The notes beneath the pieces were generated by a model, which made no database searches, was not told the origin of the DNA, and saw nothing but the letters and a program-made list of their open reading frames with translations. Positions 6,969-48,033 of a stretch of 64,000 nucleotides of DNA are shown in pieces. Both the position numbers and the translations under genes were made by a program. The first letter of the stretch is position 1, and the number at the start of each line of letters is the position of its first letter. The DNA is from Phymorhynchus buccinoides (taxonomy: Eukaryota > Mollusca > Gastropoda > Neogastropoda > Raphitomidae): contig CM065691.1 of assembly GCA_017654935.2 (NCBI GenBank), positions 35,642,900 through 35,706,899 on the forward strand. The letters run 5' to 3'.

Positions 6969-26632
<19,664 letters not shown>

Positions 26633-27290: not shown

Positions 27291-27714
27291 GCGACTTTGA
27301 AAGCCTAACGGCTATATTTTTTCGTCCCTATTTCTAATCTAATCTAATCTAATCATCATAAAGAGGTTGGTCACCACCACAGAAGAAGAGGGAGACACGA
27401 CTATGATATGTACAAAGTTAATTGCTACCCTTATTTTGCACTGAACTCAATCTTAATATTATTAATAATAATAATAAGCGAACACTTATATCGCGCTTTT
27501 TATCGAGCACAGGCGCCTTGCAATCAGCATTGAAAACACTTACACACGCACAACGTCATGCAGTGACAGACACACGCGCACAAACACGGATACACACGCA
27601 CAACACACTCACGCACTAGGCCTACGTGCACGCAGGCGAGTGAACGCGTTCTTGCACACAGACATACACACACAGACCCACACACATTTCATCAAACACA
27701 CAGAAAACACATTA

Positions 27715-27928
27715 GGGGAAGACGGGGTAAAAAGCGCATGGGCGGGTAAGAAGCCCACCCCAATTATCTCATGAAATAAAGAAAATTTCAGTCAAATTTG
27801 CCCATGAGACGAATGCTAAACATTAACGCTCGTTTCATGGGCAAAATAAGACTGAAATTAGCTTCATTTCATGAGATAATTGGGGTGGGCTTCTTACCCG
27901 CCCATGCGCTTTTTACCCCGTCTTCCCC
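27715..27928. mobile_element. Foldback MITE, 214 bp, TA-flanked
   Basis: The ends are perfect inverts: ggggaagacggggtaaaaag and its complement, flanked by TA. The arms continue through gcgcatgggcgggtaagaag and aattatctcatgaaat. The element is almost one palindrome with a short loop and has no coding capacity. Confidence 0.8.
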
Positions 27929-27989
27929 TATGACTGAAAATTAAACGCACACAAACTTACTCAAACATACACTTGTACTGACAGACATG

Positions 27990-28372
27990 CCTGCACGCAC
28001 GCACACACACACACACACACACAGTAGGCCCTACACACACACAGAGAGAGACACACACAACTTGAACACACACGCGCACTCACGTACACAAAACACTCCG
28101 GTGCACTCACACTCACAGACACATACTCGCACACACTCACTCCGCCCCCCCCCCCCCCCTCTCTCTCTCTCTAGCCGAACAATCTCTCCTGCGCACACTA
28201 CACTCATACCCACACACACACAAAACACACACACGCAACTTGCTCGGCAGCGCGGCCGTGGCGCACGCACACTCACAACTTACATACATACACATACACA
28301 AATTACATACATACATCGCACAACTCGCACGCACACGCGCACACACGCACGCACACGCACACACACACACAT

Positions 28373-28412
<40 letters not shown>

Positions 28413-28449
28413 ACGCACACACGCACACACACACACACACACACACACT

Positions 28450-28490
<41 letters not shown>

Positions 28491-28581
28491 CCACGCGCGC
28501 GCACCCACACAATCACACACTGTGACACACGTACGCATGCATGCACACAAACACACGCATAGGCCTACGCGCGTACACACT

Positions 28582-28640
<59 letters not shown>
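27990..28640 (+). repeat. Large CA-rich microsatellite region
   Basis: About 650 bases of CA repeats with ACGC variants, including pure runs at about 28371-28400, 28425-28485 and 28578-28640. ORFs on both strands are low-complexity artefacts. Confidence 0.95.
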
Positions 28641-28641
<1 letters not shown>

Positions 28642-28946
28642 GAGATGGGGGGTGTTATTGGAAAGACTGCCGGAACAGATATGGGTTTTCAGGTTTGTTT
28701 TGAAATATGCTAAAGATTGACTATGTCATATCAGTCCCACTGTTCACCAAACTCAGCCGAGCTAGGCTACCAACCAAACACAGTAGTTGATAGCAGCTGT
28801 CAAGCGGTATCAGCCTCGCTGAGGCTGATTTAGTGCCTGGTGGAAAGGTCACCTACCAGCTATTTTTTGTAGGCCTTGGTGAAATAAAAAAGCACCAACA
28901 GCAGCCTACGTCAGTCTGTTCGGAGTAACAGTATGTATAGTAGTTA

Positions 28947-29318
28947 GGGGAAGACGGGGTAAAAAGCGCATGGGCGGGTAAGAAGCCCACCTCAATTATC
29001 TCATGAAATGAAGCAAATTTCAGTCTCATTTTGCCCATGAGACGAGCGTTAATGTCTAGCATTCGTCTCATGGGCAAATTTGACTGACATTTTCTTTATT
29101 TCATGAGATAATTTGGGTGGGCTTCTTACCCGCCCATGCGCTTTTTACCCCAATTATCTCATGAAATGAAGCAAATTTCAGTCTCATTTTGCCCATGAGA
29201 CGAGCGTTAATGTCTAGCATTCGTCTCATGGGCAAATTTGACTGAAATTTTCTTTATTTCATGAGATAATTGGGGTGGGCTTCTTACCCGCCCATGCGCT
29301 TTTTACCCCGTCTTCCCC
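28947..29318. mobile_element. Dimeric copy of the foldback MITE, 372 bp
   Basis: It has the same outer ends and TA flanks as 27715-27928, but the internal palindrome is duplicated with a 158-base period (starts near 28993 and 29151), joined at tttttaccccaattatctca. Confidence 0.8.
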
Positions 29319-29731
29319 TATGAGGGATGGTCAAGGCATGAAGTTTACATGACCAAAAGCATGAATCCCTGATCCTATTCATAGAAGATAATGTACACTA
29401 TATAATTTTAGGGTTAGGGTTAGGGTTATATTTTGTGCATACGCAGTTGCATTGTTCAGCCCATCGCACATGGCCGCGAGAGCCGATACGCGACGTTAAA
29501 CTGACCTTCCACTGGAATAAAATTATTATCCTCTGGACTAACATCGAAAGAAGACCGCTTCTATACTTCATGCTTGCCAGATGGGTGGGGAATGGCGGAT
29601 GACACTGTCAGTAGGCCTATCGCTTTAGGGGCAGAGAAGGAAAAGGAGCCGTTTCTTTTCTTTTCTGTTTTTTTATCTCCTCTTTTTCTTGCTTGCTTGT
29701 CAGTGGAATGCTAGGAAGATAAGAGCCACTG

Positions 29732-29732
<1 letters not shown>

Positions 29733-29790
<58 letters not shown>
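29733..29790 (+). repeat. (GA)n microsatellite
   Basis: About 57 bases of GA, followed by ordinary sequence and another CA/GA-rich patch at 29870-30050. Confidence 0.9.
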
Positions 29791-29792
<2 letters not shown>

Positions 29793-30145
29793 TCGGCACT
29801 CGGAATTAATGACCCAGGCCAACAGCCCCTATCATGACAATAGCACAAAAATACATCAATATTCACATACACCCCCTCCCCATCCACAAACACATGCTTA
29901 CACATGCGCGCACGCACGCATCAAACGTGCACACATACATTTTCACAGTCAAGCACGCACGCGCGCACATAAACGCTCACACGCACACCCACCCACACAC
30001 AGTCTCTCCCTCCCCCCTCCATCCCTCCCTCAAGAGAGAGAGAGAGAGAGACTGAAAGGCAGAAAGGCCTATAGTAGTACCAGAAATCTTGCTGCAGGCG
30101 GTCGGTGGAAAGGTCACGAGCTATGTTAACTAAAAAACCCAGCAA

Positions 30146-30440
30146 CAGGTCAGGTACATTAAGACGACTAGGCCTCGCGGCCTCTCAAGCGTCTTTTCTT
30201 TTTTTCTTTTCCTTTTTTGGGGGGTTGGCTCAGCTGTGACGGTTTTGGTAGACTATTCGTCATACTGGTATTTTAATCTACTAAGGTTTGGGTCTTTGTC
30301 CAGGAGGTTTTTGAATTTGTTAGTTAGTATCAGGTGCAAGTTTTGTCTGAGCAGGAAGTGCGTTCCAATAGTTAGTCACTCTGTTACTGAAAAAGTGTCT
30401 CCTGATGTTAGTTCTACTATACTGTGTTAGTATTTTTAAT
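30146..30440 (-). mobile_element. Second 3' end fragment of the same LINE family
   Basis: It shares with 30641-30960 the GGTCAGGTacat start, the aggcctcgcggcctctcaag block, the ggaggtttttgaatttgtta block and the ctctgttactgaaaaagtgt block, in the same orientation. Only the 3' non-coding end and the last codons are kept. Confidence 0.7.
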
Positions 30441-30640
30441 TCATGATTTCTAGTCTTTGAAAAATTTGAAATCTGAAACAATCTGCAACAGCAGTGTACG
30501 TATAGGCCCTAGGCCTATTCGAGAGGTTGGGGGTGTTGTCTTGTGCCATGCCCTTATTCTCCATTTGGCATACAGCCGGGATGCATGTTTACTGCAATGT
30601 GAATTTGTCGACATCCCACTCAGGCCACTGGCTCTTGGAC

Positions 30641-31318
30641 AGGTCAGTCAGGTCAGGGTAATGAGGGCAATTAGGCCTCGCGGCCTCTGAAGTGCCCTTT
30701 CAATTTAGTTTTTGTAGTATTGGGCACAGCTGTGACGGTTTTTGATGACTCAATCAGTCATGTTGGTATCTCAATTCTGTCAATTTAGGGTCTTTGTCCA
30801 GGTTTTTAAACTGGTTAAGGTTTGGTGCAAGCTTGATTTGTGCAGAGAGGTTATTCCAATACTTGGCAACTCTGTTAGCAAAAAAATGTTTTCTAATGTT
30901 AGTTCTGCTGTATTGTATTAGTATTTTTAATTCACAGTTTCTAGTCCGAGAATAGTCCGAGGGCTGAAACAATCTTTTGTTAGTAAAGTCAGTATTGTTA
31001 AAAAAATTTAAAACATTTATCAGGTCTCCTCGCAGCCTGTATTTCAAGGATGGCAAATCCAGCTTGCGCAGCCTTTCACCATAGTCTTTATTTTTTAAGA
31101 GATTTTATCAGTTTAGTAGCTCTCCTTTGGCATCTTTCAATTGACACAGACTGTCTTTTGATATATGGGTTCCAAATTTGATTCCCATATTCTAAATGTG
31201 GTCTCTCCAAGCTTTTATACAGGTTTATAAACACATTATTTTTTATTCCTGAAAACTCCTTCTTTTCAGGGCCCACAGTCTGTTCAAGAAACCATGCCCA
31301 TGCTTCATCCACATATAA
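30641..31318 (-). pseudogene. Truncated LINE: RT C-terminus and 3' end next to the RAG1-like gene
   Basis: The minus strand reads FINLYKSLERPHLEYGNQIW, NPYIKRQSVSIERCQRRATK and, after a frameshift near 31090, PSLKYRLRGDLINVLNFFNN and AKYWNNLSAQIK to a stop at 30754. This is the C-terminal part of a non-LTR reverse transcriptase. The 3' end carries TGACC repeats. Its truncated 5' end stops about 20 bases from the RAG1-like ATG. Confidence 0.75.
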
Positions 31319-31332
31319 TTTGACAACATATC

Positions 31333-32089
31333 ATGGCATTTAATCACATGCATTTTCATCATTACCTTCAACAAGTTCAACAACAAAACCAATATTTACA
31401 TTTTCGTATACAACAACAACAACAGGAAAACCAACAACTTACACAAGAAGTGCAACGACTTAGACAACAAGTACATCAGAAAGATAGGCGCATAGTTACA
31501 TTAGAACAAAAAGTACGTGCAAAACAGACAGAATTAGGTTCAGTCACAATAGCCAAACAAATAAAAAGATACAAAAACTTAAGTAGGGCAGGAAAATGCA
31601 AGCGACTTTCGAACGTGAGGGCGGCACTTCAAAAGACATTTTCGAACGTGTCTCCAGACACAAAGAAGATTAAGGTCTCCCTCACAATAAGTGACTATAA
31701 ACAAAAGAATATAGACATTTTCGTCAAAGGAGGACCCCTGCCAGAGCAAAAAGAGGATGTCAAGCTCCAGCAAGCAAGGAAGGTCCTCAGGGTCAAGGAC
31801 AACTTTCGCATCTCCTACGATGCTCTGATGGCCTTGAGGAAACATGCTGGCTTCGACATCCCCTCCAAAAACTTCCTCCTTGCCGAGTCCCAACGCCTGG
31901 CCACATGCTTGCAGATAATCCCCATCACAGTGAGTTGACCCCTAAACACTTCTATATTTAAATGTGTACCTCATCTTCAAATTGATGAAAGCGGATGATC
32001 AATAGAAGAAGAAGGCTCAATATTTTGAAATTACTGGAATTAGAAAAGAATACCAACATGTGGCTTGCATGATGTGCATGTGTATGTGT

Positions 32090-32140
<51 letters not shown>

Positions 32141-35100
32141 ATGTGTGATATTTATCAGTTTACTAGTATTATTTTCAATAGTCATTCATACATATATATA
32201 CTGAAGCAAAAAAAAGAAGAAGAGATGCACAGACATGTGTTTATGGACATGCCGGAGAAACCATTGCCACTTCTGGCTTTTTATAGGTTCCAAGCAATGA
32301 TGGCTGTGCAAGGTCTGTGGATGAGGTGATCCAGTTTCTACTTGATCTGCCTCAACACCAACATGTACTAGCCACAGAGAGTGAACAAATCACCATCACT
32401 CTCCGCTTTGCCTGTGATGGGGCCAAAATCACCAAAGCCAAGGACTCGGTGAAGGGGGTTTGCAAGCTGATCCATGCAGCTGGACAGGGCAGGGATTCTC
32501 CTGATGATGAGGTTACCCTTTTCCTGTACATGGGTATGTTTCCATTTGTCTGTTGTTCAGTGTTGTTTCGCTTGAATCAAAATTCATACCCATCTTCCTG
32601 CACATAATTCTAAATATATTATTTCCTGTTATTCTTCCCAAATTAAAATTACTTGAAATACATGTAGTTTTGTTTTGAAAACTTGATTTATCAAATATTT
32701 TTAAAAGTTTGTTATGTGATGAAATAGACACCCAGATTCACATTCCCTCTTTTAACTGCCTATTTATGTGAGTGTGTGTATTGTGTGTGTGGGTGTGTGT
32801 GTATCTGTGTACAGGAAAAGAAGACACAGAGACTCTCAAAGGAGCCTTGCGACAAACCAGAAGGCAAATGATGCAAGCATCTCAAACGGGCCTTCTGGTG
32901 AAGGGAAAAACAGTCAAGGTCAAATGGTATGAAAATCAATGCATTTATACAGTGTTTGCCATATAATGTATATGTGGGTGTACGGTACCTGAAACACAAA
33001 ACTCAAGAAGAGAATCTCAAATTTTATCTTGGTGAATCCCAAGGATTTCATAGATCAAGTATAATTGCACTTCTCAGTTTTGACACCACCAACATCAGGC
33101 CTCGGTATTTCAGAAAGTACTGGAACAAAAAGTACCTAAACTTAGTAGATGACATTCGATCGTAGATGCTGTCAGCACTGATTCTGTTTCTATTAGTCCA
33201 AAAGCAGATCCTAACCCCACCCGTCCCCCTCCGTTTATGCTGGTGGTCGTGAAGGCTTTGTGGAATGCCTTTTTCCGTCACTTTGAGGAAAGTGATGAGG
33301 GTATCTCAGTGGTGTCAACATGAATAAAATGGCTAGGTGGCAAAAATCTGGAGCCAATTCAAATGGTCCATTTCAGGCAGCTGTAATTCAAATGGAAGCA
33401 CCATAGAGATACAGATGGGTGATTTACCATTATCATCAACAGCTAAAAAAAAAGAGAGAATAAAACAAGAACTAGCGAAGCAGAAGAAGAGTGAAGTAAG
33501 AGGCTCTTGTATTCAGCCTGGAAGTATAAAGTGTCGGTGATGCCAAAATAAAGTGAAAGAAATAGAAGCGGATCAGTAGCTGCAGGACTTTCCAGGGCCA
33601 CTTAATATGCACTATGGGAAACTCTTTAGTAAGATTCATTGTAAAATGTGCATTAAAGGAAGCAAAATCTTCATAATGTACTGTACAGTGCCATTTTAAA
33701 TCAAGTAAACATTTGTTATGCAATTGGCAAAGATGTAAAATTATGTTTTGGAACTCATCCCCTGTGTTACCTCCTACACCACCCTCTTCCTTTCCCAGCT
33801 ACTCTTGTGCTTGAGTGTTTGAGTGAAAGAGAGAGAGACCAATACAACAATAACAGCGCAATGGTCGACTTAGCGCGCAAAATCGGCCACCAGGGCGTTA
33901 GGGTCTTTACCTCGTGATTTTCTTACTTGGGAGTAGGGAGAGTGGGAGGGGTGGAGGGGGTGAGCCACCCTCTCTCTCACTCCCTTTCCCCAAGTAATAA
34001 AATCACGAGGATTCACCCCTTTTGGAGGTCATGCTCCCTGGTGGCAAAAACGGCAGCTAATTAAGTTGCTCATTGTTGGTTGTCGAATTTGAAAAGCGTA
34101 TTGAGCTTATGTGTAGATTTGTTGCGTTGACCCTTCACGGGGCATGTGATTTATCTTCTGGCAACTGCGTTGGTGTACAAGCATAACTAGTCTGACACCA
34201 TACCAACCTGGGACGGTATTCATGTCGAGATAGCATGAGACTTAGCATGATGCTAACTTAGAAGCTCTTCCAAAAGTCCTATTAAATCCTATAGGACATT
34301 GGAAGAGCTTCTAAGTTAGCATCATGCTAAGTCTCATGCTATCTCAACGTGAATACCGTCCCAGGGCCTGTATTTACGTTGAGATAGCATGAGACTTAGC
34401 ATGATGCTAACTTAGAAGCTCTTCCAATGTCCTATAGGATTTAATAGGACTTTTGGAAGAGCTTCTAAGTTAGCATCATGCTAAGTCTCATGCTATCTCA
34501 ACGTAAATACAGGCCCAGGTTCACTAAATTTGGCATGTAGGTGCATCTGACCCTTAGTATGACCACCATGATCTTGAAAATGTTCATGATCAAAGATCAA
34601 GGTTACAGCAGCGGCGCCCAGAAATTGCCACTATGCTGTTTCAGAGATGAGAATCACCAAATACAGTGTAAAAAAAAAAGGATGAAAAAATAGAGGGAAT
34701 CTGGAGACCAGTATTTTGACTCCTGCTTGGGCCAGGAGGACGCCCTTCCCTTACAGGATCTGGGGGACTCCCCCTTCTCCCTTAGGATCTGGATCCCCCC
34801 CCCCCCCCATTTTGGAGTAAAGTGAATTTGAACTCCCCATCACTTTCCGAACCCTCCCCCCCCCCCCCCCCCCCCCCATTCCAGCAGATCTTGGGGACTT
34901 TCACACATTCAGATACACACACACACACACACACACCGGCGGATTTGTTTTATTTTTGTGGATTTGAACTCCCAAACTCCCAGTCACATTCTGAACAACT
35001 TTCCCCCAACCCCAACTCTTGAGGAAACTGATCGAGTATAAAACGAACATCACGCAACTCTCGACACTTTGTGTTCTTGCTAAAATACAATGTTGGAAAG

Positions 35101-35262
35101 GAAATCTGAAAATGATTCTTAAAATTTGCATAGAGAGTTCTTTGGACCCTCTCATTTTATTCTTATGGAAAACACTTGTATCAGACAGACTAATGCATGA
35201 CTGTTTCTGCTATATTTCCTAATAGATTGACATGTTAACTTTACCACAGTTTAATATTATTG

Positions 35263-35325
<63 letters not shown>

Positions 35326-38300
35326 GTTTTCTCCACAGGCTCCTGTGTTCAGATTGGAAGGCGATGTCTCTGTTGAAGGGCATCAATGCTGCCAATTCGA
35401 AACACTTCTGTCTCTGGTGCAAGTGCAGCAAACCCGAGATTACCCAGTTCAACAGTAAACTTTTTTTTCTTGTTTCATCAAAGTTTAGTTTTTAGTTGAG
35501 CGACTCCTCATGTGCTGTGCAAATTACATTTACTGACAACTGTGTTAGTTTGTGTGCAAGCGTAGCTCCGCCACCATATAAGCCAGGGCCTGTATTCACG
35601 TTGAGATAGCATGAGACTTAGCATGATGCTAACTTAGAAGCTCTTCCAGTGTCCTATAGGATTTAATAAGACTTTTGGAAGAACTTCTAAGTTAGCATGA
35701 TGCTAAGTCTCATGCTATCTCAACGTGAATACAGGCCCGGGTTCACTAAATTTGGCATGAAGATGCATCTGACCCTTAGCCTGACCGCCATGATTTTCAA
35801 CATTCAAGTTTTAAGGTCACAGCAGCCACGCCCAAAAATTGTATGCATTTGGGGATTTCAGTGAATTTGTACTCCCCATCAAATTCTGAGCAAGCTTCAT
35901 TTTTGGGGTACACCCCCTCCCCCCTTCCTCCCGCAAGATCTTGGGGACACCACCCCACCCCAGATGCTTTTATTTAGTTAGTTGATTTTAGCTCATCACT
36001 TTCATTTTCACATACATACACTCATACTCATACCCGTAGGAAAGCTCAAGTACAAAAGTAACAATTTTCACACGACTACCCACACTTTGTGCTCTTGTTA
36101 AACATTTTTAGTCGTGCGACTCCAGTTCTCAGAGCGTGCGACTTATCTGATGGCACTTGCATTGATTTGAATGTATACATGTAATGGATGCAAGTGTGTG
36201 TGTACAAGTGTAGCTCCCAAACCGAACAAGCCAAGTTCACCAAATTTGGCAGGAAGATGCATCTTACCAATGCTCCAACCATCACCTGAAAAATCCCCCC
36301 CCCCCCGTAATTATAGCCTCCTCTCTTTTTGGGGATGAAGGGGTGTCCTGATGATACACACACCTCATGTGACTACCAACACTTCATGTTCTTGTTAGCT
36401 CAATTTTGCAATTTATAATGACATACATACACATATATACATATGCATACACACATACATGCATACTTCCATCCATCCAACCATCCATCCAGAGAGATTA
36501 AGACTTCAGAAACTCTATTTTACAATGAAGAGAATTTACACTAGACCTGTCGATTCTTACAATCTGTCATTGGCGAAAAACAACAACAACCAAACAGTAA
36601 TATATAACACTAAACTAGAAGAAAAATATAACTACATAAAACGTGCAAACCAGGATCATGAAGGACAACAAGAAGCTGTCAAAATAACATTTCAACTAAT
36701 TAATGCAAGAAACAAAATAATAATAAATAAATAAATAGAATTGAAGGGAAAAGAACATGTCAACTATAATACCATAAGTTTTCATCTAAAACCAAATCAA
36801 TTCATTGAATCAGGGATGTACAGTAGACCTCCTATACATCCCTGATTGAATGAAGTAATTGTGTTGAATCACTTAATACTGTACTTTATGGATTACAAGG
36901 CACACCTCATTATAAGGCTCACCCCTCAAATTTGACGAAAAAAGAGGATGTTGGAATGTTAGTATATTTTTCTACCATTTTATCAGTCACATTACTTGAT
37001 GCAGGGGGCTCAATGTTGGAAAAAAGGGCAAAGGTAAAGATGTGCCACCCCCCCTGCATTTCTCGGTTAATTCTATTTTTCCGTTTTTGCCTTTCTTACC
37101 ATACATAAAGCTGTATTTTAGGAACATATTCAGCTAATAACCTTTTTGGAATACTAACCCTAACCCTAACCCTAGCCCTAAACCTAACCCTACCCCCCAC
37201 TATGTACTGCAGTACACCGCGATTTGTCACAGTTGTGGTTCGTTGCGTTTTTCCGTCTTATAGAGTGGGGGGTAGGGTTAGGGCTAGGGTTAGGGTTAGT
37301 ATTCCAAAAAGGTTATTAGCTAAAAATGTTCCTAAAATACAGCTTTATGTATGGTAAGAAAGGCAATAACGGAAAAATAGAATTCACCGAGATAGGTAGG
37401 GGGTGTGGCACATCTTGACCTTTACCGAAAAAAGTATCGCCTTGTAGTCCGTAAAATATGCTATTTAAATATCATACAGATGTGGTTATTGTTTGCATGT
37501 TCATGCAGAAAGCTGGAAGACCTCAAGAAGCTACGAAGAGCAGATTGCCTGCCTTCGTGCACCTGCATCAGAGACATATGGCTACCAACGACCAGATATG
37601 CTGCCCTTTATTCCATTTGAAAATATGGTACCTGATGACCTACACCTCAGAATGCGCATAACAAACAAGCTTCTGAACCAGGTATTTTGTTAGTGTGAAA
37701 CCAGGTTTGCATTGTAGAATTCCCCAAATAGTTACAATATCTCACTAGAATTAAGCACTCGAGCGTACACCCCTGTCAGGGTAGCTCATTCCATGTTTTT
37801 GAGCATTTATTTATTGATGTTTTGATGCCCCCATCTCTACACAGTGACACAATGTGCACTCAGTTTCCAACATTGATTGGCACAAGGCCTAGTACCTGTC
37901 CAGTTTGCAACTATCCTTCAAGGGACGCGAGCCTGATAAAAATGAGAACAATCTTTTAGGCACAGTTCCGTCCTTTACATAGGGCTTTTGTGTATGAGTT
38001 AGGCTTAAAGAGAAAAAATCTTGTATGAAGATGGATATCTGGATCACCACCAAAATTTAATCATTTGTTCATTGGCCCATTGACAATAATCCCAACCAGT
38101 ATCATGCAAATCCGTTCCAAACATTTTGCTTAAAGTAGTGCACTAACAAACAAACCAACGCTGGTAAAAATATAACCTCCTTTGGCGGAGGTAAATTATG
38201 TGTCTCTTGTGACAATAAAAAAAACCCAACTATATTGTGTTTACATGGAAGTTTTCGTGTCTTGTTTTTTTTTCATTTATTGATTGCAGGTTGTGGTGTG

Positions 38301-41300
38301 GTCAATTGACCAGAAAAGGACCCAGTTTCTTCTGCAAGAGATGAAACGACTCAACGTCAACTTCACCATCACAGAAGAAACTGGGGACGATGGAAAGGGC
38401 AGCATAAAGAAATGGTCTCAACTGCAAGGTACAGTATTACTTATACACACATGTTGTTGTTCTAATGTTGTAGCATTCCTCAGCTAAACACTCTGAGGGC
38501 ACCCAGATGGGTGGAAGATTGCGTGTGTGGCTTTTTTTTTTTTTTACCTTGCACATGGGCAGCCACTCTTGAACCTCCTGCAGTGCAATGCATGAAAGTA
38601 GACCATTACAGTTGTGAACTTTATTGCTGATTTTACATTGCAACAGTGCAGTGACATTCATTAACTGTTGATATATACAAGGAGCATACCATGGCTGAAT
38701 GTATTCCCAAGATAACATTTTGTAACTAAAGTTTGCTTTAGCCATGTAGTTATACCTGATGTCATTGGATTGTCAACTAAAAAAGGAGCGCCTTATAGTC
38801 TGAAAAATACGGTGTATGCCATGGCTATCTTGCACACATTTAATTTTAATCCTTTTGTCTTTCCACATATCCATTTCACTGTTAGTGAAACTCTTAAAGC
38901 GTTGCACCGGAGATAACATATTCTCAGTTATATCCTCAAACACATCTTATGAACATTTTCAATTGAAGAAAGACATTGTCTGAATTTCAGGTGATCACCT
39001 TGAAAAAGTTCTCAAGAACATGAAAGTGATCAACGTTCTTGATCGTGGTCCCCGTCGAGTGAAAAACCTCCAACTCCTTCCAAAGGACATCCTTAGGAGG
39101 TCTGTTGAACACAGAACGGGGACCACACACCAGAAATCCACCAAGCCAGAACTTGTGCTCATCTTGCAGCGTCTCCTGACTGAAGAGGAACAGGTATAAG
39201 TGAAAGCCAGAAGATGCTACATTGAAACATTGATGGGAGTCTACTTTCAAGACATGTTTGTCAGTTATTTTGATTAGATACCCCCAACATACCCATATTT
39301 ATGCAATTATTCTGAATTGCTGTCAAAGAAACCTGTAATGTGAAACACTTTTCAACATATTATTCTGATGTAGTCATAAAGAAGCCAACAACAGCAACAT
39401 CAAGGCACCGGCGTGTGGCAAATATGTCATTTGCCTGTGTTACGCCCCCCTGGCCTGCCCTGCACATCTTTGCCCCCTTCTTTCATGTTTATTTCAGAGT
39501 TCCTTTCACACTTTAGGATGGCCTTTACACTTGCCTTAGTGCCACAACATTCATTTCTGTGACAGTAGTTTTAGATTAACTTTCTACTTTCAAAAAATAA
39601 ATAAAAAAAGAGACTTTCTACTCTGCTTTCTTTTTTGAGGTGCACCATTTCTGTCAAGCAGTTCGGGAGATATCCCCAGGAACATTTAAGTTCAAAAAGA
39701 CAACCCTCTGATTTTCAGGACCTTGATCGGGATACCTTAAGTTTGATGCACCATAAGCCTAAGTACTTAGGCTAAAAAATAAAAAAAAAAGATTTGTTTC
39801 CGGTTTCCCGACTGCCCCTAGTTTTTTGCTGCCGACCCTAAACTTTTTTTTGACAAATGAGGGAAATGTTTTTTAAAACATCAATAAAACGAAAGCAGTG
39901 TTCCCGTTACGCAAGTATGTGCGTCACAGACGTCAATGACGTATAAGTTACCGAAATGGATGCAAAAATTCATCACCCAGTGCATCAGTTTGATGTATAT
40001 TTAAAAATTTAAAAAAAGATGCCGACCTACCGACACTATTTTTAAAACAAATGAAACAGGAAACAGACCTTTTTTTGGGGGGGGGCCTTACATACTTAGT
40101 TTTGATATTTAAGTCCAACGATAGGAAAGTTATGGCGAAAAAACGAAATTCGGTTTTCAAGGTCATACTAAGGTCATGACCTTGATAACTTACATGCCAA
40201 TGTCTTTCTGTCATGGAGTCAAAAAGGTTCAATGGATTCTTTCACATGGTTCAGGAGGTATACTTGGGACAAACAAACAAAAAAAGAAAAAAAGAAAAAA
40301 AAACCAAACAAATCTATCTATGTTAGTATCTATCTGGCTATGTTACCATGATAGTGGACACATGGAATGTGCTTCAAATTTTGCATGTGGATAGGCATGG
40401 TAGAAATCTAGTCCAAGTTTGATTTTGGGGTTGATCAAAAACAGAAGGAGAATGCGCATGTCCGACACATAACAATAAAGCATAGTGTATTTCTCACCGC
40501 TTTCCATACTGCATGCTGGTCTGCAATGCGGTGGACTGGAGTTTGAATTGCCAACAGGAATGCTTTTTTTTGTAAATACTGGATCAAACGCTACGTCAAT
40601 GTCAACACTGTTCCCAAAAATGCTGCTGCGCAGCTGGTTGCTCTAGCGTTTCATGCTCTAGTTTATATCTTAACTTTGACAAAGGGCAAGCAATATGAAA
40701 TTGTGAAGTACATTCCATAAAGTTGAATACAAGCTTATCAATTGTCACTTTTCACAAAATACGGTCAAACGCAACATTATTGGAATGATGTTTGGGTGAA
40801 GTTTTATTTTGTTTTTCTGTTGTTCACAGAACATCTAATTCTTACAAATTTCAGAGGAATCTTGTTGCTCGCCGAAGGCCAAACAGGTCCCAATGTGTGG
40901 ATCCAGATGCCAGCCCCGATGCAGCAGATGGAGAAGCACATGAACCGGAACTGAGGCCTGACGCGATCCAAGAGCTTTGGGAGGAGTTCGACCAGCTCAT
41001 GGACTCCCTCAAAGTCAATCCTGCTCCTTCACCAGAAGTCTTCCACGAAAGAGCAAAGGCCTGGGCAGAAAAGTTCAAACATGATACCTTTGATGCAGAC
41101 GTGATCCCATACATTCATGGTAAGATACACTGCTTATTTTATGTGTCATTCAGAGCTTAAAACTGTTTTAAAATTGTAAGGGCCTTATGATCCATGGTTA
41201 CAAGAAAGAATGGTACATTTTCCCAAGTAATGGGCAAAATGTGTCACTGAAGTATTCAACTTTACTTCTATTGCAAATTTCATGGGTCAGATGACCCCTT

Positions 41301-43906
41301 GCTGCACTAAATGAGGATCAAATAAACATGAACATGGGTCAGTGACTTGGGCCCATTGACAATCTGAAGCTCTGGACATTTACAACTATGTTAAAACCAT
41401 GATATATTATTGAATAGAGAGAAGGGGCTCAACATAGGGACAGAGAGAGGTAGATAGACAAGACTTGTAATAAAAGTGTTTAAGCACAAACAATGCATCA
41501 TTTCTTGTAACCAAGACAGTCCTTGATACATTTTTTCATTAAACCTACGTATACTGTAAACGTTGAGGCTGAAACCTGTCTGAAGCTCTGTCTGAACGGC
41601 TGCAGACAATTTTGTACACACTTAGTGACTTGCTCTTCAGCATCTCCCAAAGATTTTCACACCCATTTTGGACCGGCAATCTAAAAGGCTGGGCTATAAT
41701 AGGTGATTGAAACGGGGTAACCCCCCCCTCCATCTTTTTGCCTGCGTGCCTGAGACAAAGGGCTGAACCCTGTTGTCCCACTTAACTAACCGACCTAAGG
41801 TTTTGCTCTCTCTCACGCTTGCAGCGGTGGAGTGGAGTGAAAGTACAAGGCACAAAGCTTTCTCCCTCGTATGTATGCAGTGGTGGGGTGGAGTGAGGGA
41901 AGAGGGGAGAATGGTAAGAAATAAGACTTGTGTTGTAGAAGGGTAAGGGAGGAGAGGGGGTGGGGGCGATGCCAGGCGAAGCCGGGAATGTTAGCTAGTT
42001 TGTTTATATGTTGTCAATTTCTTTTGTCTTCAGCAATGGTGTATCATGTGCCAGAGGCCCTCGCCAAATTTCGTTTCCTTCCGTCGCTTGGAATTTCGCA
42101 ACTGGAAAGGAAGAATTATGACCAGCACCTGGTGTACTTCCAAGGGACCAGTAAGCAAGGAGGGAAAAAAAAGAAGAAGGTCACAAGGCAGGTAGGAGAC
42201 ATTTTTTTTTATCAACAGCCTTTGCATTTCTTTGAGAATTAAGAAGGGGTGGTTGACCATGTTTATTAGATAGAAGTCGTGCCATGTTAAAGAAGTACTA
42301 TTTCAAGAAATTTGACAATATTAAATCCTTTGATTTAAGAACGAAAAATGTTATAAAATCCTATTCTCTTGGTTGTTTACTTTCAGATAATGGAGCGTGA
42401 AAACAGACTCCTGCTTTATGAAAAGAATCCACCTGTGACTGGTAAGACAGCTAATTTCATTTTTGCTGTACATGTAGTTTGACTATCAAGTTTTCAGTTG
42501 CTTTGTTACCTGTCTGGTACTATCAAATTTCATAATTAGAAATTTTTCTTAAAAAAGTCCACAAAGTTTGGCACATGCTCTTTTAGTTTCATTGCATCCA
42601 ATGTCTGGAATTCTTTCATCCCTCTTCTTCTAGAGATTCTTTTCATGCTGCATGCATTGAAAACATCTTCTCCACCACTACTGTCTTTATCTTTGGCAGG
42701 CACACTGATCACTTTCGGATGCAATATTGGTGTATGTGTATGTTATATGTGGGAAGGGGAGGGGAGGTGGGAGTTGCTGATGTGACATTGAGTGTGTGAT
42801 GTATGAGCATGTTTGTGTGTGAGAGAGCGCAAGTGTGTGTGTTTCAGTGAGCCTATCAGTTTGCTTGTCGATTTTATTATTTCATATCAAACTAGAAGGG
42901 AGGTCATTTAATGTAGCATTCGAGAATCACCCGCGTCGCTAGTTTTCAAGGTCATACGTCTAGGTCATAACCTAAATGACCCCAAAAGGCACATCTACAA
43001 TACCCAGCCTACATGCCCACCGCATTTTATCTTCAAAAGTCCATTTTACTGAACCCCTGAATTTCAGAGTCCAGCGATCTCCTTGACCATGATCGGGTCA
43101 ACAATTGTCATATGGAGCATAAGCCAAACCACCTTCATACCAAGTTTCAACATCATATGTCGACTAGTGCCCGAGATAAGGCTAAACACAGATTTTCAGT
43201 TTTCAAGGTCACACGTCAAAGTCCTGACCTTGACCTTGACCCTAAAAGGCACATCCACAGTACCTAACCTACATGCACATTGTTTCATCTTCCTATCTGT
43301 ATTCCTTCATGGTGATATGCTGTTAACAAGCACACACACATACGTACACACATACATACACAGCCACTTACACAACAAAAACAATATCACTCCGCTACGT
43401 AAACTCTGCGGGTGATAAATACAGTTATTCTTCCAATCTTCACTTCATGTTATTATATATGCGCAAAGAGCATATTTACTTGTTTCTGTGACGTGCGATA
43501 TATAAGACTTCTTTATTTTAAATTATTATAATCTTTAATATTCTTATGTAGTCACTGGTGTCACCAAAGTCTTGTTTGTGCAGGTGAAAGAGCAGAGTCT
43601 GATTCTGAAGAGAACAACAGAGAGGGGGAAGAGAACAGAGAGGAGGAAGAGAACAGAGAGGGGGAAGAGAACAGAGGGGAGGAAGAGAACAGAGAGGAGG
43701 AAGAGAACAGAGGGGAGGAAGAGAACAGAGGGGAGGAAGAGGACAGAGAGGGTGAAGAGAACAGCGAGGAGGAAGAGAACAGAGGGGAGGAAGAGGACAG
43801 CGAGGAGGAAGACAACAGTGAGGAGGAAGAGAACAGAGGGGAGGAAGAGAACAGCGAGGAGGAAGAAAGAGCAGCAAACAGTGAAACAGATGAAGATGCT
43901 AACTAA
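31333..43906 (+). CDS. RAG1/Transib-like DDE transposase-family protein (11 exons, 795 aa)
   Basis: Exons: 31333-31929, 32287-32533, 32815-32926, 35339-35454, 37509-37681, 38290-38428, 38991-39193, 40855-41119, 42034-42191, 42387-42441, 43584-43906. Donors and acceptors are GT/AG, phases join, and no stop interrupts 795 codons. Residues 1-70 are Gln-rich coiled coil. The core has Asp243 in a CDG motif, Asp324 in CSDW, Cys343 and Cys346 (FCLWC), His617 and His622 (YIHAMVYHVPE) and Glu642 (QLERKN). Mouse RAG1, from memory, has D600 (also CDG), D708, C727/C730, H937/H942 and E962. D to CxxC is 19 residues in both, His to His 5, and second His to Glu 20. This points to a DDE nuclease with RAG1-type zinc ligands. 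The tail (690-795) is acidic repeats. Exon 8 could start earlier, at 40831. No terminal inverted repeats or RAG2 partner were found, so transposon versus host gene is open. Confidence 0.85.
32094..32141 (+). repeat. (TG)n microsatellite in intron 1 of the RAG1-like gene
   Basis: About 46 bases of TG. It lies between exon 1 (ends 31929) and exon 2 (starts 32287). Confidence 0.9.
32287..32533 (+). CDS. Exon 2 of the RAG1-like gene, with the first catalytic Asp
   Basis: The exon begins after ttatag and ends at a GTATGT donor in phase 1. It encodes residues 200-281. The motif LRFACDGAKITK places Asp243 in a CDG tripeptide, as RAG1 has at D600. The preceding residues (about 165-195) contain YDALMALRKH followed by PSKNFLLAESQRL, a helical lead-in. 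Confidence 0.8.
33909..34011. repeat. Hairpin with GC-rich loop in intron 3 of the RAG1-like gene
   Basis: The arms cctcgtgattttcttacttg and its near complement caagtaataaaatcacgagg enclose a G-rich then C/T-rich loop (gggagtgagagagagggtggc on the complementary side). Possibly a small foldback element. Confidence 0.55.
34209..34363. mobile_element. Foldback MITE, first of a tandem pair (RAG1-like intron 3)
   Basis: Near-perfect palindrome: gggacggtattcatgtcgag on the left, with tctcaacgtgaataccgtcc on the right. The arms run through agcatgagacttagcatgat and aacttagaagctcttcca, with a loop of about 20 bases. Confidence 0.8.
34364..34517. mobile_element. Foldback MITE, second of a tandem pair
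   Basis: Same family as the preceding element, in opposite loop orientation. The ends read gggcctgtatttacgttgag, with the inverse on the right. The two elements abut with only the shared CAG between them. Confidence 0.8.
34520..34640 (+). repeat. Dispersed repeat hosting the foldback MITE (copy 1 of 3)
   Basis: This segment has ggttcactaaatttggcatg, gatgcatctgacccttagta-like and ggttacagcagcggcgccca blocks. Related segments lie at 35740-35840 and 36232-36280, with matching upstream flanks (gcgttggtgtacaagc-type) at about 34160, 35550 and 36195. Confidence 0.6.
35263..35322 (+). repeat. (TG)n microsatellite at the exon 4 acceptor of the RAG1-like gene
   Basis: About 58 bases of TG end 16 bases before the exon 4 acceptor, so they occupy the region where a pyrimidine tract and branch point are expected; only ttttgttttctccacag follows. 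Confidence 0.9.
35339..35454 (+). CDS. Exon 4 of the RAG1-like gene, with second Asp and CxxC zinc pair
   Basis: The acceptor ctccacag follows a long (TG)n run. The exon encodes LLCSDWKAMSLLKG and then INAANSKHFCLWCKC. Asp324 to Cys343 is 19 residues, the same as RAG1 D708 to C727, and the CxxC spacing also matches. It joins exon 3 (ending 32926) through a split Trp codon. The polymorphic microsatellite directly at the acceptor could affect splicing. Confidence 0.8.
35586..35738. mobile_element. Third copy of the foldback MITE (RAG1-like intron 4)
   Basis: The ends are gggcctgtattcacgttgag with the inverse at the right. The arms are the same as at 34209-34517. It is followed by gttcactaaatttggcatga, the same flank that follows the 34364-34517 copy. 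Confidence 0.8.
36884..37460. mobile_element. Non-autonomous DNA transposon with nested foldback and telomeric arms
   Basis: The outer ends are inverted: tactttatggattacaaggc on the left, and gccttgtagtccgtaaaata on the right. Inside, about 37030-37425, long arms pair (aaagctgtattttaggaaca with tgttcctaaaatacagcttt; aacctttttggaatactaac with its inverse). Both arms carry three to five CCCTAA/TTAGGG units at 37155-37195 and 37270-37300. It ends 48 bases before exon 5 of the RAG1-like gene. Confidence 0.7.
39194..40854. other. Intron 7 of the RAG1-like gene
   Basis: Mostly AT-rich, with a dispersed-repeat segment around 39640-40440 (ttcaaggtcatactaaggtc, atgaccttgataacttacat). Similar ttttcaaggtca blocks recur at 42946 and 43197 in the last intron. 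No coding segment was recognised. Confidence 0.5.
42034..42191 (+). CDS. Exon 9 of the RAG1-like gene, with second zinc His and catalytic Glu
   Basis: After the acceptor cttcag the exon reads MVYHVPEALAKFRF and then LPSLGISQLERKNYDQHLVY. The first zinc His (617) is the second-last residue before the exon 8/9 junction and His622 is here. Glu642 lies 20 residues further on, equal to RAG1 H942 to E962. RAG1 also has HVPE immediately after its second His ligand. The exon ends with a Lys-rich stretch and a GTAGGA donor. Confidence 0.8.
43584..43906 (+). CDS. Last exon of the RAG1-like gene: acidic repeat tail
   Basis: In frame with exon 10, this exon encodes about 107 residues dominated by repeats of the type ENRGEEE and ENREEEE, and ends ANSETDEDAN then TAA. 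The DNA is an 18-base-type purine-rich minisatellite. Other frames over it give long low-complexity ORFs that are shadows. Acidic tails occur in chromatin-associated proteins, but the function here is unknown. Confidence 0.7.
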
Positions 43907-44240
43907 GTAGAAACTACTGCAAAGCAGGATTGTGTGGAAACCCAGTCCAAAATCGCCTCTCCCTGTAAATAGTGTGTTTCTATATATATTTGTAGTGTTG
44001 TGTTGCCGAGGGCCATTCACACGAAGACCAAGAGATGGCTTTGCTCTTTATTCTCAATTCGATCACATGAATCTGACGTGCTGTGTTGGGAGTCGGGGCC
44101 TGACAGCTTTCTCACGCACGCTCTCCACAATTACACTTCTGATCGCTCAGAGTTCATTCCCATCATTCCGAATTCATTCACTCGCACGTGCACGACATTC
44201 TAAACATTCTCACTTCGCCCTCTCACATATTTTTAAAACT

Positions 44241-44461
44241 TCACGAGTAAATTGAGTCCTGAACATAGCTAACATTGACTCTTGCAATGTTGTCATCCAT
44301 TTGGAATTTGACATACCAGTTTAAGACTTTGCCCATAGTGTGTTGGTCATATGTCGGCTGAATCGGCACGTCAGTGTTGCCAGAGAAGGGACCACCCTCC
44401 TCCACCTGGCACTGGTCAGCCCTCTCCCCTGCTGATTTACCAGGGACCCAGGAACATCTGA
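44241..44461 (-). other. Unidentified open exon-like segment converging on the RAG1-like gene
   Basis: After a minus-strand acceptor (ctttcag) the frame reads CSWVPGKSAGERADQCQVEE, then GGPFSGNTDVPIQPTYDQHT and VLNWYVKFQMDD to a stop. Composition is protein-like, not low-complexity. I do not recognise it. It lies tail-to-tail with the RAG1-like gene, but no kelch-type motif is visible. No partner exon was identified. Confidence 0.35.
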
Positions 44462-44739
44462 AAGTACACAAATTTGTTTTTACTAAAGCTGATGACGAGT
44501 AAGACCTGTGGGGTGAGAATACTGAATTGTTTCCTCACGATAAATCCCAAGTACTGTCTTTCCAATTTAAGACATGACAAATGAGTGGTGCAGTACACAC
44601 AATGAAGGAAGATGTGGAAAATCCAGGTGTTGACATCTGTGTGGGGAAACACGGACATAGCATGTCAAAATGAAAGTACATTTTGGTGTACCTTCTCACC
44701 TCTGTTCACTAAATCATGGAAAGACTGCAACATCACCCA

Positions 44740-45112
44740 CTCTTCTCCTCCTCCAACCAGTTCCTTCTGCCTCCTCATGAACAACTACAACGTCACCCAC
44801 TCTTCTCCTCCAACCAGTTCCTTCCGCCTCCTCATGAACAACTACAACGTCACCCACTCTTCTCCTCCAACCAGTTCTTTCCGCCTCCTCATGAACAACT
44901 ACAACGTCACCCACTCTTCTCCTCCAACCAGTTCCTTCCGCCTCCTCATGAACAACTACAACGTCACCCACTCTTCTCCTCCAACCAGTTCCTTCAGCCT
45001 CCTCATGAACAACTACAACGTCACCCACTCTTCTCCTCCAACCAGTTCCTTCCGCCTCCTCATGAACAACTACAATGTCACCCACTCTTCTCCTCCAACC
45101 AGTTCCTTCTGC
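44740..45112. repeat. 57-bp minisatellite, about seven units
   Basis: The unit starts atgaacaactacaacgtcac and continues ccactcttctcctccaacca and gttccttccgcctcctc. Starts are 57 bases apart (44777, 44834 and so on). Because 57 is a multiple of three, several frames stay open on both strands (19-residue repeats). None shows a convincing gene context. Confidence 0.85.
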
Positions 45113-45184
45113 CGCCTTACCACTGTCTGCTTTTCCCCACACTGTCAGACACCCAAGAATTGAGGACAGTCTCTCCTCATCTGC

Positions 45185-45725
45185 AATCATTGGTCAACAT
45201 GGCGACCCCGAGCTGCAGTCAAGTTGGCGACCCCCGTGCTGCAGTCATTGGTGAACATGGCAACCCCAAGCTGCAGTCAACGGTCAACTTGGTGACCCTA
45301 TGCTGCAGTCAACCTGGCAACCCCGTGCTGCAGTCAACGGTCAACTTGGCGACCCTATGCTACAAAAAACGGTCAACCTGGCAACCTCGAGCTGCAGTCA
45401 ACCTGGTGACCCCGTGCGGCAGTCAACGATCAACCTGGCGACCCCATGCTGCAGTCAACGGTCAACCTGGCGACCTCGAGCTGCAGTCAACGATCAACCT
45501 GGCGACCCTGTGCTGCAGTCAACTTGGTGACCCTATGCTGCAGTCAACGATCAACCTGGCGACCCCGTGCTGCAAACGGTCAACCTGGTGACCCCGTGCT
45601 GCAGTCAACAGTCAACCCTATGCTGCAGTCAACGGACAACCTGGCGACACTATGCTGCAGTCAACGGTCAACTTGGCGACCCTGTGCTGCAGTCAGCGGT
45701 CAACCTGGCGACCCTGTGCTGTAGT
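45185..45725. repeat. About 32-bp minisatellite with shorter variants
   Basis: Repeats of ctgcagtcaacggtcaacct then ggcgaccctgtg, with some units lacking acggtca. There are more than fifteen units. The unit length is not a multiple of three, so frames shift and no ORF is credible. Confidence 0.85.
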
Positions 45726-45839
45726 ATCCGGGCTGGACCAATCCGGCTAGCGTAGCGCTCACCGGGGACGAACCCCGACCGGCACAGCTCCGGCCCTTCA
45801 TTTACCACTACTTTGACCTATGGCCCCTAATTCCTTATT

Positions 45840-46187
45840 TTAATTTTTAATTGGAGCAGGCCCTGAAGGTGTACCACCTGGCGCTGATGGTCTGCGCTGG
45901 CGGGGCCTGCTGCGATGGCTTCGTCGGTCAGTTGATTCCACTCCATCACTGTTCTTACAAAGGAGTTGCTGTACATACAGAGCTGTGCTGCTTGGTGGAA
46001 TTATGAAGCCTCTTGAATTTTGCACAGCTTGTCTCTGAACAATGTTGTCTGTTGTGCAGTCAGCATATCTTGTGGGCCTGATCCTACCACGATTTGCGTC
46101 GACTGGAGTTAAAAAATCCTCTGGTGGTAAAACTGGTGGTGTGCTTGTGCGTGTGTGTGTGAAAGTTCCATTGGATTGGCCACTCAT
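45840..46187 (-). other. Unidentified ORF, 115 codons
   Basis: The frame starts MSGQSNGTFTHTRTSTPPVL and includes DANRGRIRPTRYADC and a Pro/Arg-rich end (SRPRQRRPSAPGGTPSG). Its RPTRYADC segment faintly recalls C-termini of retroelement polyproteins, but this is weak. Composition is not microsatellite-like. Confidence 0.3.
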
Positions 46188-46593
46188 ATTTCTAGTGACC
46201 TATTTGATGCAACATGTGCAACACGTGTGAAAACAATTCCAATTTTTTAAATTCAGTCAAAATATCACACATGCCTAATTCAAGTTTTAAAAACTTATAA
46301 AAAAAAGGTTTTAAAAACTTGACAATGTAAACTAGTCTAGTGTTAAAAAAAGAAGAAAAAGAACAAAGAATAAATCAGAAATGGATTCTGACAATACAAA
46401 CTCCCTCCATCGCCGTGATGCACCACCACACAAAATGTGAAGCAATTTTGTTCTCTGGTTCATGATACAGATTGGGAACGAAATATATTGCCCAAAGAAG
46501 GAAACGTCGGTTATTAAGGTCAAACGTCAAGGTCAGCACAGTCCTAGTCGTGAATACGATAACAAAACTTTTGTACACATGTATTATTAACAA

Positions 46594-46800
46594 TTCGGGA
46601 CTTTCCTGGTGTTGCACTGCCTCCGGGCATTGCCTCCAGGATTGGTCCCACCATCTTTATATATACTAATGTCCCATATGTGTCTGAAGGAAAATAAAAA
46701 CGGATTTTCATCAAGATGTCTACCCCTCTGCCAAATTTGATAGGAATCCGTCCAGTAGTTTTTAAGAAAATTGATACACCGACAAACAGTACACAGATAC
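46594..46800 (+). repeat. Dispersed repeat, longer copy
   Basis: It contains gggactttcctggtgttgca, ctgcctccgggcattgcctc and ccaccatctttatat, then a tail with gataggaatccgtccagtag. The first 90 bases or so recur at 49473-49560. Confidence 0.6.
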
Positions 46801-46960
46801 CCCTGGCCGGGTAAAAAAAGTGCAACAGTAGTAGTTAGAAAAGCAGGAAGCCTTTGACCTTTAATACAAGAACTTCAAAATGACATAGACAAACATACGT
46901 ACAAAGTGATTTCAGAATACCCCTACCCTCTACCTAGGAATGCAGGGGCATAGTAAACAG

Positions 46961-47145
46961 CGGGGCCGTTTTGGTTGTTGTAGGGCCGTTTTCGTTATTG
47001 ACAGTATGGCTGTTTTGGTTTTCCGAGTACGGTCGTTTTGGCAGGACAAGGCCGTTTTTGTATTTTGAGTAGGGCCGTTTTCGTTATTGATAGTAGGGCC
47101 GTTTTCGTTTTCCGAGTAGGGCCGTTTTCATAGGACAAGGGCCGC
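46961..47145. repeat. Degenerate gggccgttttcgtt minisatellite
   Basis: Seven or more blocks of gggccgttttcgtt type are spaced about 22-32 bases apart, separated by attgatagta or ttccgagta. Irregular spacing suggests an old tandem array. Confidence 0.7.
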
Positions 47146-48033
47146 CGTTTTCTCCGGTAACCGTTCCATTCCCTGCTGGTTCTGGAAATGGAGTTGTATT
47201 TTTAGTGCTGCTGTTTTTGCAAGCTGGATGGTGAAGTAGCGTTCTGGTTCCCAAGTCGAAAGGGACGTATTGTGACATAAAATCAACGAAAAACTAGGAG
47301 AGCACACTCTATTTATAATCCCTACATATTTAAGTGACCTGGCCAGTGAGTGTTCATTATTTCTAGCCAGTTGTTCCACTACATTTTTGCTTACCGGATT
47401 TACCTGCATTGCTGGTTTGATGAGTCGGTTGTTTTTCGATGGTGTTAGATATTTGACAGCCTCGATGCCGAGTAGTAAAATTTGGTGGAAGGACAATAAC
47501 AAGCGAGCGTGAATTCGCAATAGTTTGTGGCACGCGGCCTATTTTTACCACTCCAATCATGAGTCACCTCCCCTGGCTTTTCAATAATTTAAATCTGTAA
47601 ACCAGAATGTTATCTCTGCACCATTTCATAACTTTTTATATCTTTTGGAAAACATTTAAAACTATTTATCCTACTTTATACTCATCAAAAGAAGCACCGC
47701 ATACTCGTCGTGTCTGTTGTAGTGTCTGTATTACGTATGTTTATTATTTTGTACGCTTTCAAATACATCATTTTAAAGAGCGGCATCAATTTGAAGTGCA
47801 GCCTCAATTTGAAGTGCGACAATTTTGTCAATATGTGCGACAATTTTGGACCGACCGACAGACAGACCGACCGACAAAGTGAGTTAAGTAGGTTTGTGGC
47901 TTGAGCCACAAACAAAAATATCAACAGAAGTTAAAATTCAGTCTTATGTATGAATGACTGTTTTGGGGACTGCAAAGAAGAATAAGAATGAATTAACTGT
48001 TCATGTTTAATTCAAAATTTATTAAAAGTTTAT

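What the first reader, a model, noticed from the sequence alone, without database searches (positions are those of the whole stretch)
31333..43906. Intact multi-exon gene with a RAG1-type catalytic core
The spliced 795-residue protein has Asp243 (CDG), Asp324, Cys343/Cys346, His617/His622 and Glu642. Three spacings equal those of mouse RAG1 (numbers recalled): second Asp to first Cys 19, His to His 5, second His to Glu 20. The CxxC spacing also matches, and CDG and HVPE occur in both. The D-to-D distance differs (81 against 108) and overall identity looks very low. This suggests a deep branch of the RAG1/Transib superfamily outside the known RAG1-like elements, with all catalytic and zinc ligands kept.
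Basis: partly seen in the sequence, partly recalled or inferred. Interest (0 to 1): 0.95.

Follow-up and report, generated by a model that had tools for sequence, protein, structure and literature searches.

The report
Intact RAG1-fold, Chapaev-like transposase gene
This 11-exon gene from what looks like a marine snail encodes a protein with the same DNA-cutting core as the enzyme that shuffles vertebrate antibody genes, but it belongs to an apparently undescribed branch that lies nearer to a group of jumping genes called Chapaev.

The parts
31333..31929 (+). Exon 1: start codon, glutamine-rich coiled-coil-like N-terminus (by eye) and pre-catalytic region (aa 1-199)
   Evidence: the 84-base unit 31414-31497 appears 2-4 times in fragment copies, read from the blast blocks
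32287..32533 (+). Exon 2; D243 (first catalytic Asp, CDG) at 32416-32418
   Evidence: aligned to RAG1 D600 in 3 of 4 settings
32815..32926 (+). Exon 3
35339..35454 (+). Exon 4; D324 at 35352-35354, C343 at 35409-35411, C346 at 35418-35420
   Evidence: aligned to RAG1 D708, C727, C730
37509..37681 (+). Exon 5; PDDLHL motif, H403 at 37643-37645
   Evidence: aligned to RAG1 H795
38290..38428 (+). Exon 6
38991..39193 (+). Exon 7; divergent SAP-like segment about 39053-39193 (aa 483-529)
   Evidence: alignment to relatives whose SAP passes Pfam; the window protein itself gives no SAP hit
40855..41119 (+). Exon 8; H617 at 41116-41118
   Evidence: RAG1 H937; one match in the assembly
42034..42191 (+). 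Exon 9; H622 at 42045-42047, E642 (catalytic Glu) at 42105-42107
   Evidence: RAG1 H942, E962; one match in the assembly for 42034-42441
42387..42441 (+). Exon 10
43584..43906 (+). Exon 11: acidic Glu-rich repeat tail and stop codon (least certain exon)
   Evidence: P0002 and P0006 also end in acidic tails
34205..34521 (.). Near-perfect palindromic insert in intron 3 (MITE-like); 34212-34514 absent from the C32 fragment copy
35583..35743 (.). Second palindrome of the same kind, in intron 4
37027..37428 (.). Inverted-repeat insert in intron 4; the two C24 copies lack it (empty site)

Best explanation
The gene encodes an intact DDE transposase-type DNA endonuclease with the RAG1-core architecture. 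It belongs to an apparently undescribed animal clade next to Chapaev within the wider Transib/Chapaev (CMCT) group. Shown by computation: gene model, aligned catalytic and zinc residues, RAG1-like fold of a close relative, separate clade, one complete copy found in this assembly. Inferred: it works as a RAG1/Transib-like dimer. The helical region before D243 would dimerise and bind DNA, D243/D324/E642 would bind two metal ions and cut DNA by nick and hairpin, C343/C346/H617/H622 would hold a structural zinc, and the SAP-like insert would give further DNA contact. Since exons 8-10 were found once, no convincing transposon ends were found, and the gene has ten introns, it is most likely immobile now: a domesticated gene or the last complete copy of a former transposon.
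Against: No expression or activity data; no test of selection on the catalytic half. The three longest exon 7 rows have 4, 4 and 5 replacing and no silent differences. Fragments of the gene on six other contigs hint at past mobility. One weak end pair (14 of 20 bases with a 6-base flank repeat, 27633/44188) stands slightly above five shuffles and was not followed. Foldseek's own superposition on RAG1 is loose (TM about 0.5-0.58, rmsd about 13 A). The window protein itself was not modelled. RAG1 was one sequence; no Transib sequence was used in the profile comparison, so Transib could be as near as Chapaev. The window protein matches no Pfam family significantly. A reversed DUF1280 profile scored 0.029 against RAG1, so 0.01 to RAG1 is not significant by itself.
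Confidence: 0.68

Rival explanations
1. A still mobile or recently mobile DNA transposon whose ends were missed; the window holds its one complete copy and the other loci are its broken copies.
For: Fragments on contigs C32, C10, C14, C15, C3 and C24 at about 87-98% DNA identity in blocks over the gene; the C10a copy jumps from exon 1 (31882) to intron 6 (38599); exon 1 differences are mostly silent per site; the left flank changes near 30510 between window/C32 and C10/C14/C15; one weak end pair; Littorina has two relatives (P0001, P0003) 47% identical to each other; some relatives have lost E642 or the C-terminus.
Against: No other place matched exon 8 or exons 9-10; the C32 block stops inside exon 4; no common right end beyond short repeat-like matches; no convincing inverted-repeat pair with target duplication; 12.6 kb with ten introns is large for this kind of element (inference).
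Confidence: 0.32
2. A true RAG1/RAGL/Transib lineage member: its nearest kin is RAGL or Transib rather than Chapaev.
For: Structural Z to RAG1 (25.4) is higher than that of the DUF1280 control (23.0); CDG, HVPE and all spacings but D-D agree with mouse RAG1.
Confidence: 0.12
3. A dead pseudogene of such a transposase that happens to be open.
For: The introns are full of repeats; the fragment copies are broken.
Against: 795 codons and 20 splice sites intact and every catalytic residue kept; exons 1-3 are 98-99% identical to the C32 copy against 96.9% over a 2,104-base block that includes introns.
Confidence: 0.06
4. Another DDE superfamily (hAT, P element, Kolobok) that mimics RAG1 by chance.
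For: All share an RNase H fold (recalled).
Confidence: 0.02

Closest known systems
Chapaev transposases (Pfam DUF1280, PF06918; ORFs on C7 and C3 of the same genome, L034 and L036)
   Same: D1, D2, CxxC, xxLHL, H(4)H in register, D2-C spacing 19; best sequence score; fold of a DUF1280 control
   Different: No DUF1280 hit for the window protein; no Cys-rich N-terminus; SAP in relatives where DUF1280 proteins have a PHD-like Cys/His cluster in the same interval; separate clade; ten introns
Vertebrate RAG1 / amphioxus RAG1L (ProtoRAG)
   Same: Core fold and order of parts over RAG1 459-992, DDE, ZnC2/ZnH2 ligands, H795 equivalent
   Different: 12-14% identity; D-D 81 against 108; no RAG2 partner found in the ORFs scanned; no Pfam RAG1 match
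Transib (HzTransib)
   Different: No sequence hit at E <= 10 in a profile search of PDB chains; single-gene mobile element with short TIRs (recalled), none found convincingly here
Uncharacterised proteins P0001-P0006 and P0008-P0016 (Littorina, Nucella, Mytilus, Batillaria, Babylonia, Branchiostoma, Haliotis, Exaiptasia and sources without organism name)
   Same: Same clade for the 14 of these 15 that were long enough for the tree; P0001 50% identical over the core
   Different: Five have a SAP domain above the noise in Pfam, the rest none; a few lack parts of the core

Membership tests
CMCT / wider Transib-Chapaev group | C(2)C and H(3-4)H between second D and last E (PMC12730594, section 16 read) | tested here: met
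CMCT / wider Transib-Chapaev group | CA..TG termini in most cases and 2-5 bp target duplications | tested here: inconclusive
   no convincing pair in 27500-31332 against 43907-48000, ungapped scan, or among the 25 longest of 181 inverted repeats; the left flank is disturbed
RAG1/RAGL | RAG1-core fold with DDE and zinc ligands in register | tested here: met
   (the model is of relative P0001; residue register by profile alignment)
RAG1/RAGL | sequence match to the RAG1 family profile (PF12940) | tested here: not met
   no hit at E <= 10 for the window protein or 15 relatives; HMMER filters drop most matches above about 0.1
RAG1/RAGL | adjacent convergent RAG2-like gene | tested here: inconclusive
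   10 of 16 downstream minus-strand ORFs of 80 aa or more scanned, no kelch; a spliced or distant RAG2L is not excluded
Chapaev | DUF1280 profile (Chapaev according to passages of PMC3985635) | tested here: not met
   window protein no hit; 1 of 15 relatives at 0.045, under the cut-off; same-genome Chapaev-type ORFs pass
Chapaev | N-terminal Chapa zinc finger (passages of PMC4411706) | tested here: not met
   three scattered Cys (89, 192, 206) in aa 1-240, against clustered Cys in the two Chapaev-type ORFs; no Chapa model was available
Chapaev | significant profile similarity and shared residue register | tested here: met
Transib | sequence kinship to Transib transposases | tested here: inconclusive
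hAT | best fold match to a hAT transposase | tested here: inconclusive
Domesticated host gene | same locus in other species, expression, selection | not testable with these tools
   no other snail genome or RNA held; a weak coding-constraint signal in exon 1 only

The most novel reading that the evidence does not exclude
A third animal branch beside RAG1/Transib and Chapaev, marked in part of its members by a SAP DNA-binding module in the interval where DUF1280/Chapaev proteins carry a PHD-like Cys/His cluster, has given rise in snails to a domesticated, multi-exon, catalytically complete recombinase gene, a second instance of what happened to RAG1 in vertebrates.
Probability: 0.25. Interest if true: 0.88.

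Novelty: new variant of a known kind. Interest (0 to 1): 0.6.

Why it matters
It fills a gap between RAG1/Transib and Chapaev. It shows that the eight active-site and zinc positions of RAG1 are shared well beyond RAG1, and gives a family in which two different DNA- or chromatin-binding modules (PHD-like, SAP) seem to sit between the second catalytic Asp and the Glu. If the snail gene is domesticated, it would be an independent host use of a RAG1-like endonuclease outside vertebrates.

Tried and rejected
Rejected: that the RAG1 structural match alone makes it a RAG1 relative (control). Rejected: that window 47496-47919, found downstream of the C3 fragment, is the right end of an element; it is a dispersed repeat (46 matches from 40 scored of 2,299 candidates). 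Not settled: the left flank changes near 30510 between window/C32 and C10/C14/C15. I read it as insertions upstream of the gene in the window and C32 (one at 30639-31255; LINE-like is my recollection, Pfam gave no hit for the ORF 30754-31104), but a transposon end there is not excluded. Not followed: the weak end pair 27633/44188.

Led nowhere: phmmer and hmmsearch of PDB sequences gave no RAG1; the profile search gave five weak rows, the best two SAP domains at 0.0013 and 0.025. Literature: listings showed no description of a SAP-bearing transposase or gastropod RAG1-type gene of this kind. Papers opened: PMC12730594 (passages; section 16), PMC7204232 (passages), PMC3985635 (passages), PMC4411706 (passages). 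Repbase is not held, so a Repbase name cannot be excluded. Never answered because busy: the viral structure library, and in the own genome RAG1 PF12940, DUF1280 PF06918 and the 3' flank 43907-44700. In the structural list families other than those named were not excluded by their absence.

Full report
Observation. Eleven exons between 31333 and 43906 join in one frame to 795 residues, with GT and AG at all ten introns. All seven residues named are at the stated positions. Mouse RAG1 sequences from the PDB confirm the recalled numbers and show that the three spacings are equal. Exon 11, a Glu-rich tail, is the least certain, because other acceptors would also leave an open tail.

Relatives. A protein search gave eight proteins and a profile search fifteen, ten of them new. 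The names given are uncharacterised, hypothetical or unnamed protein, except SAP domain-containing protein for P0011 in one source. I left P0007 (fused to an integrase), P0017 and P0018 out of the family alignment. In that alignment D243, D324, C343, C346, H403 and H617 have no substitution where a row has a letter; H622 differs in P0003 and P0015, E642 in P0002.

Copy number and mobility. The window lies in a 2.12-Gb assembly. A search with 621 residues gave 68 matches. Of these, 51 at E < 1e-3 are pieces of this gene: the window locus and fragments on C32, C10 (tandem), C14, C15, C3 and C24. The other 17, from 0.0187 up, are 16 distant matches, three of which I fetched and found to be Chapaev-type, and a short window exon. 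Exon 8 and exons 9-10 have one match each, the window; only the best candidates are scored by that tool. The C32 blocks cover exons 1-3 and end four bases after the codon of D324. The C24 copies show exon 5 only within the 19-20 kb fetched, with H403 changed to Q. Exon 1 differences, pooled by hand over the six longest of sixteen rows (rows under 80 bases were dropped there), are 36 silent per 618.7 sites and 45 replacing per 2,243.3 sites, a ratio of 0.34; the rows are not independent, and the three longest exon 7 rows go the other way (0 silent; 4, 4 and 5 replacing). No convincing inverted-repeat pair with target duplication frames the gene: apart from CA repeats one weak pair (14 of 20, 6-base flank repeat, 27633/44188) lies slightly above five shuffles and was not followed. 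The copies share no right end beyond short repeat-like matches. Flanking host genes are CCDC22 on the left and AGK on the right, both on the minus strand.

Conclusion. The protein is a DDE enzyme of RAG1 architecture from an apparently undescribed clade near Chapaev. The mechanism (dimer, two-metal nick and hairpin chemistry, structural zinc, SAP-like DNA contact) is inferred from RAG1 and Transib. That the gene is immobile and perhaps domesticated follows from catalytic exons found once, ten introns and missing ends, and is open to refutation by comparison with other snail genomes.

Noticed in passing
window 13050-22028, minus strand: Exons of a CCDC22 gene: four ORFs match Pfam CCDC22_N or CCDC22_CC, two of them above the curated cut-off.
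   Followed up: partly
window 52696-56521, minus strand: Two ORFs match the acylglycerol kinase C-terminal domain (2e-7 above, 5e-4 under the cut-off), so the gene lies between two ordinary host genes.
   Followed up: partly
L028-L029 and L030-L031 (C10): A 109-base piece of intron 6 and exon 7 is repeated head to tail about eleven times in two neighbouring copies; a gene fragment is turning into a satellite.
   Followed up: partly
window 37027-37428; L006, L009: Inverted-repeat insert in intron 4 that two fragment copies on C24 lack (empty site).
   Followed up: partly
window 47480-47930: Dispersed repeat of about 420 bases, 93-97% identical in the 39 other places listed; 40 of 2,299 candidates scored.
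   Followed up: yes
L034, L035, L036: Long Chapaev-type ORFs (954 and 1,200 aa and part of a third) in the same genome; the readable part of the L035 protein looks identical to that of L034 by eye.
   Followed up: partly
P0007 (Batillaria): A predicted protein joins the N-terminal part of this family to a retroelement integrase; it may be a gene-model artefact.
   Followed up: no
   Followed up: no
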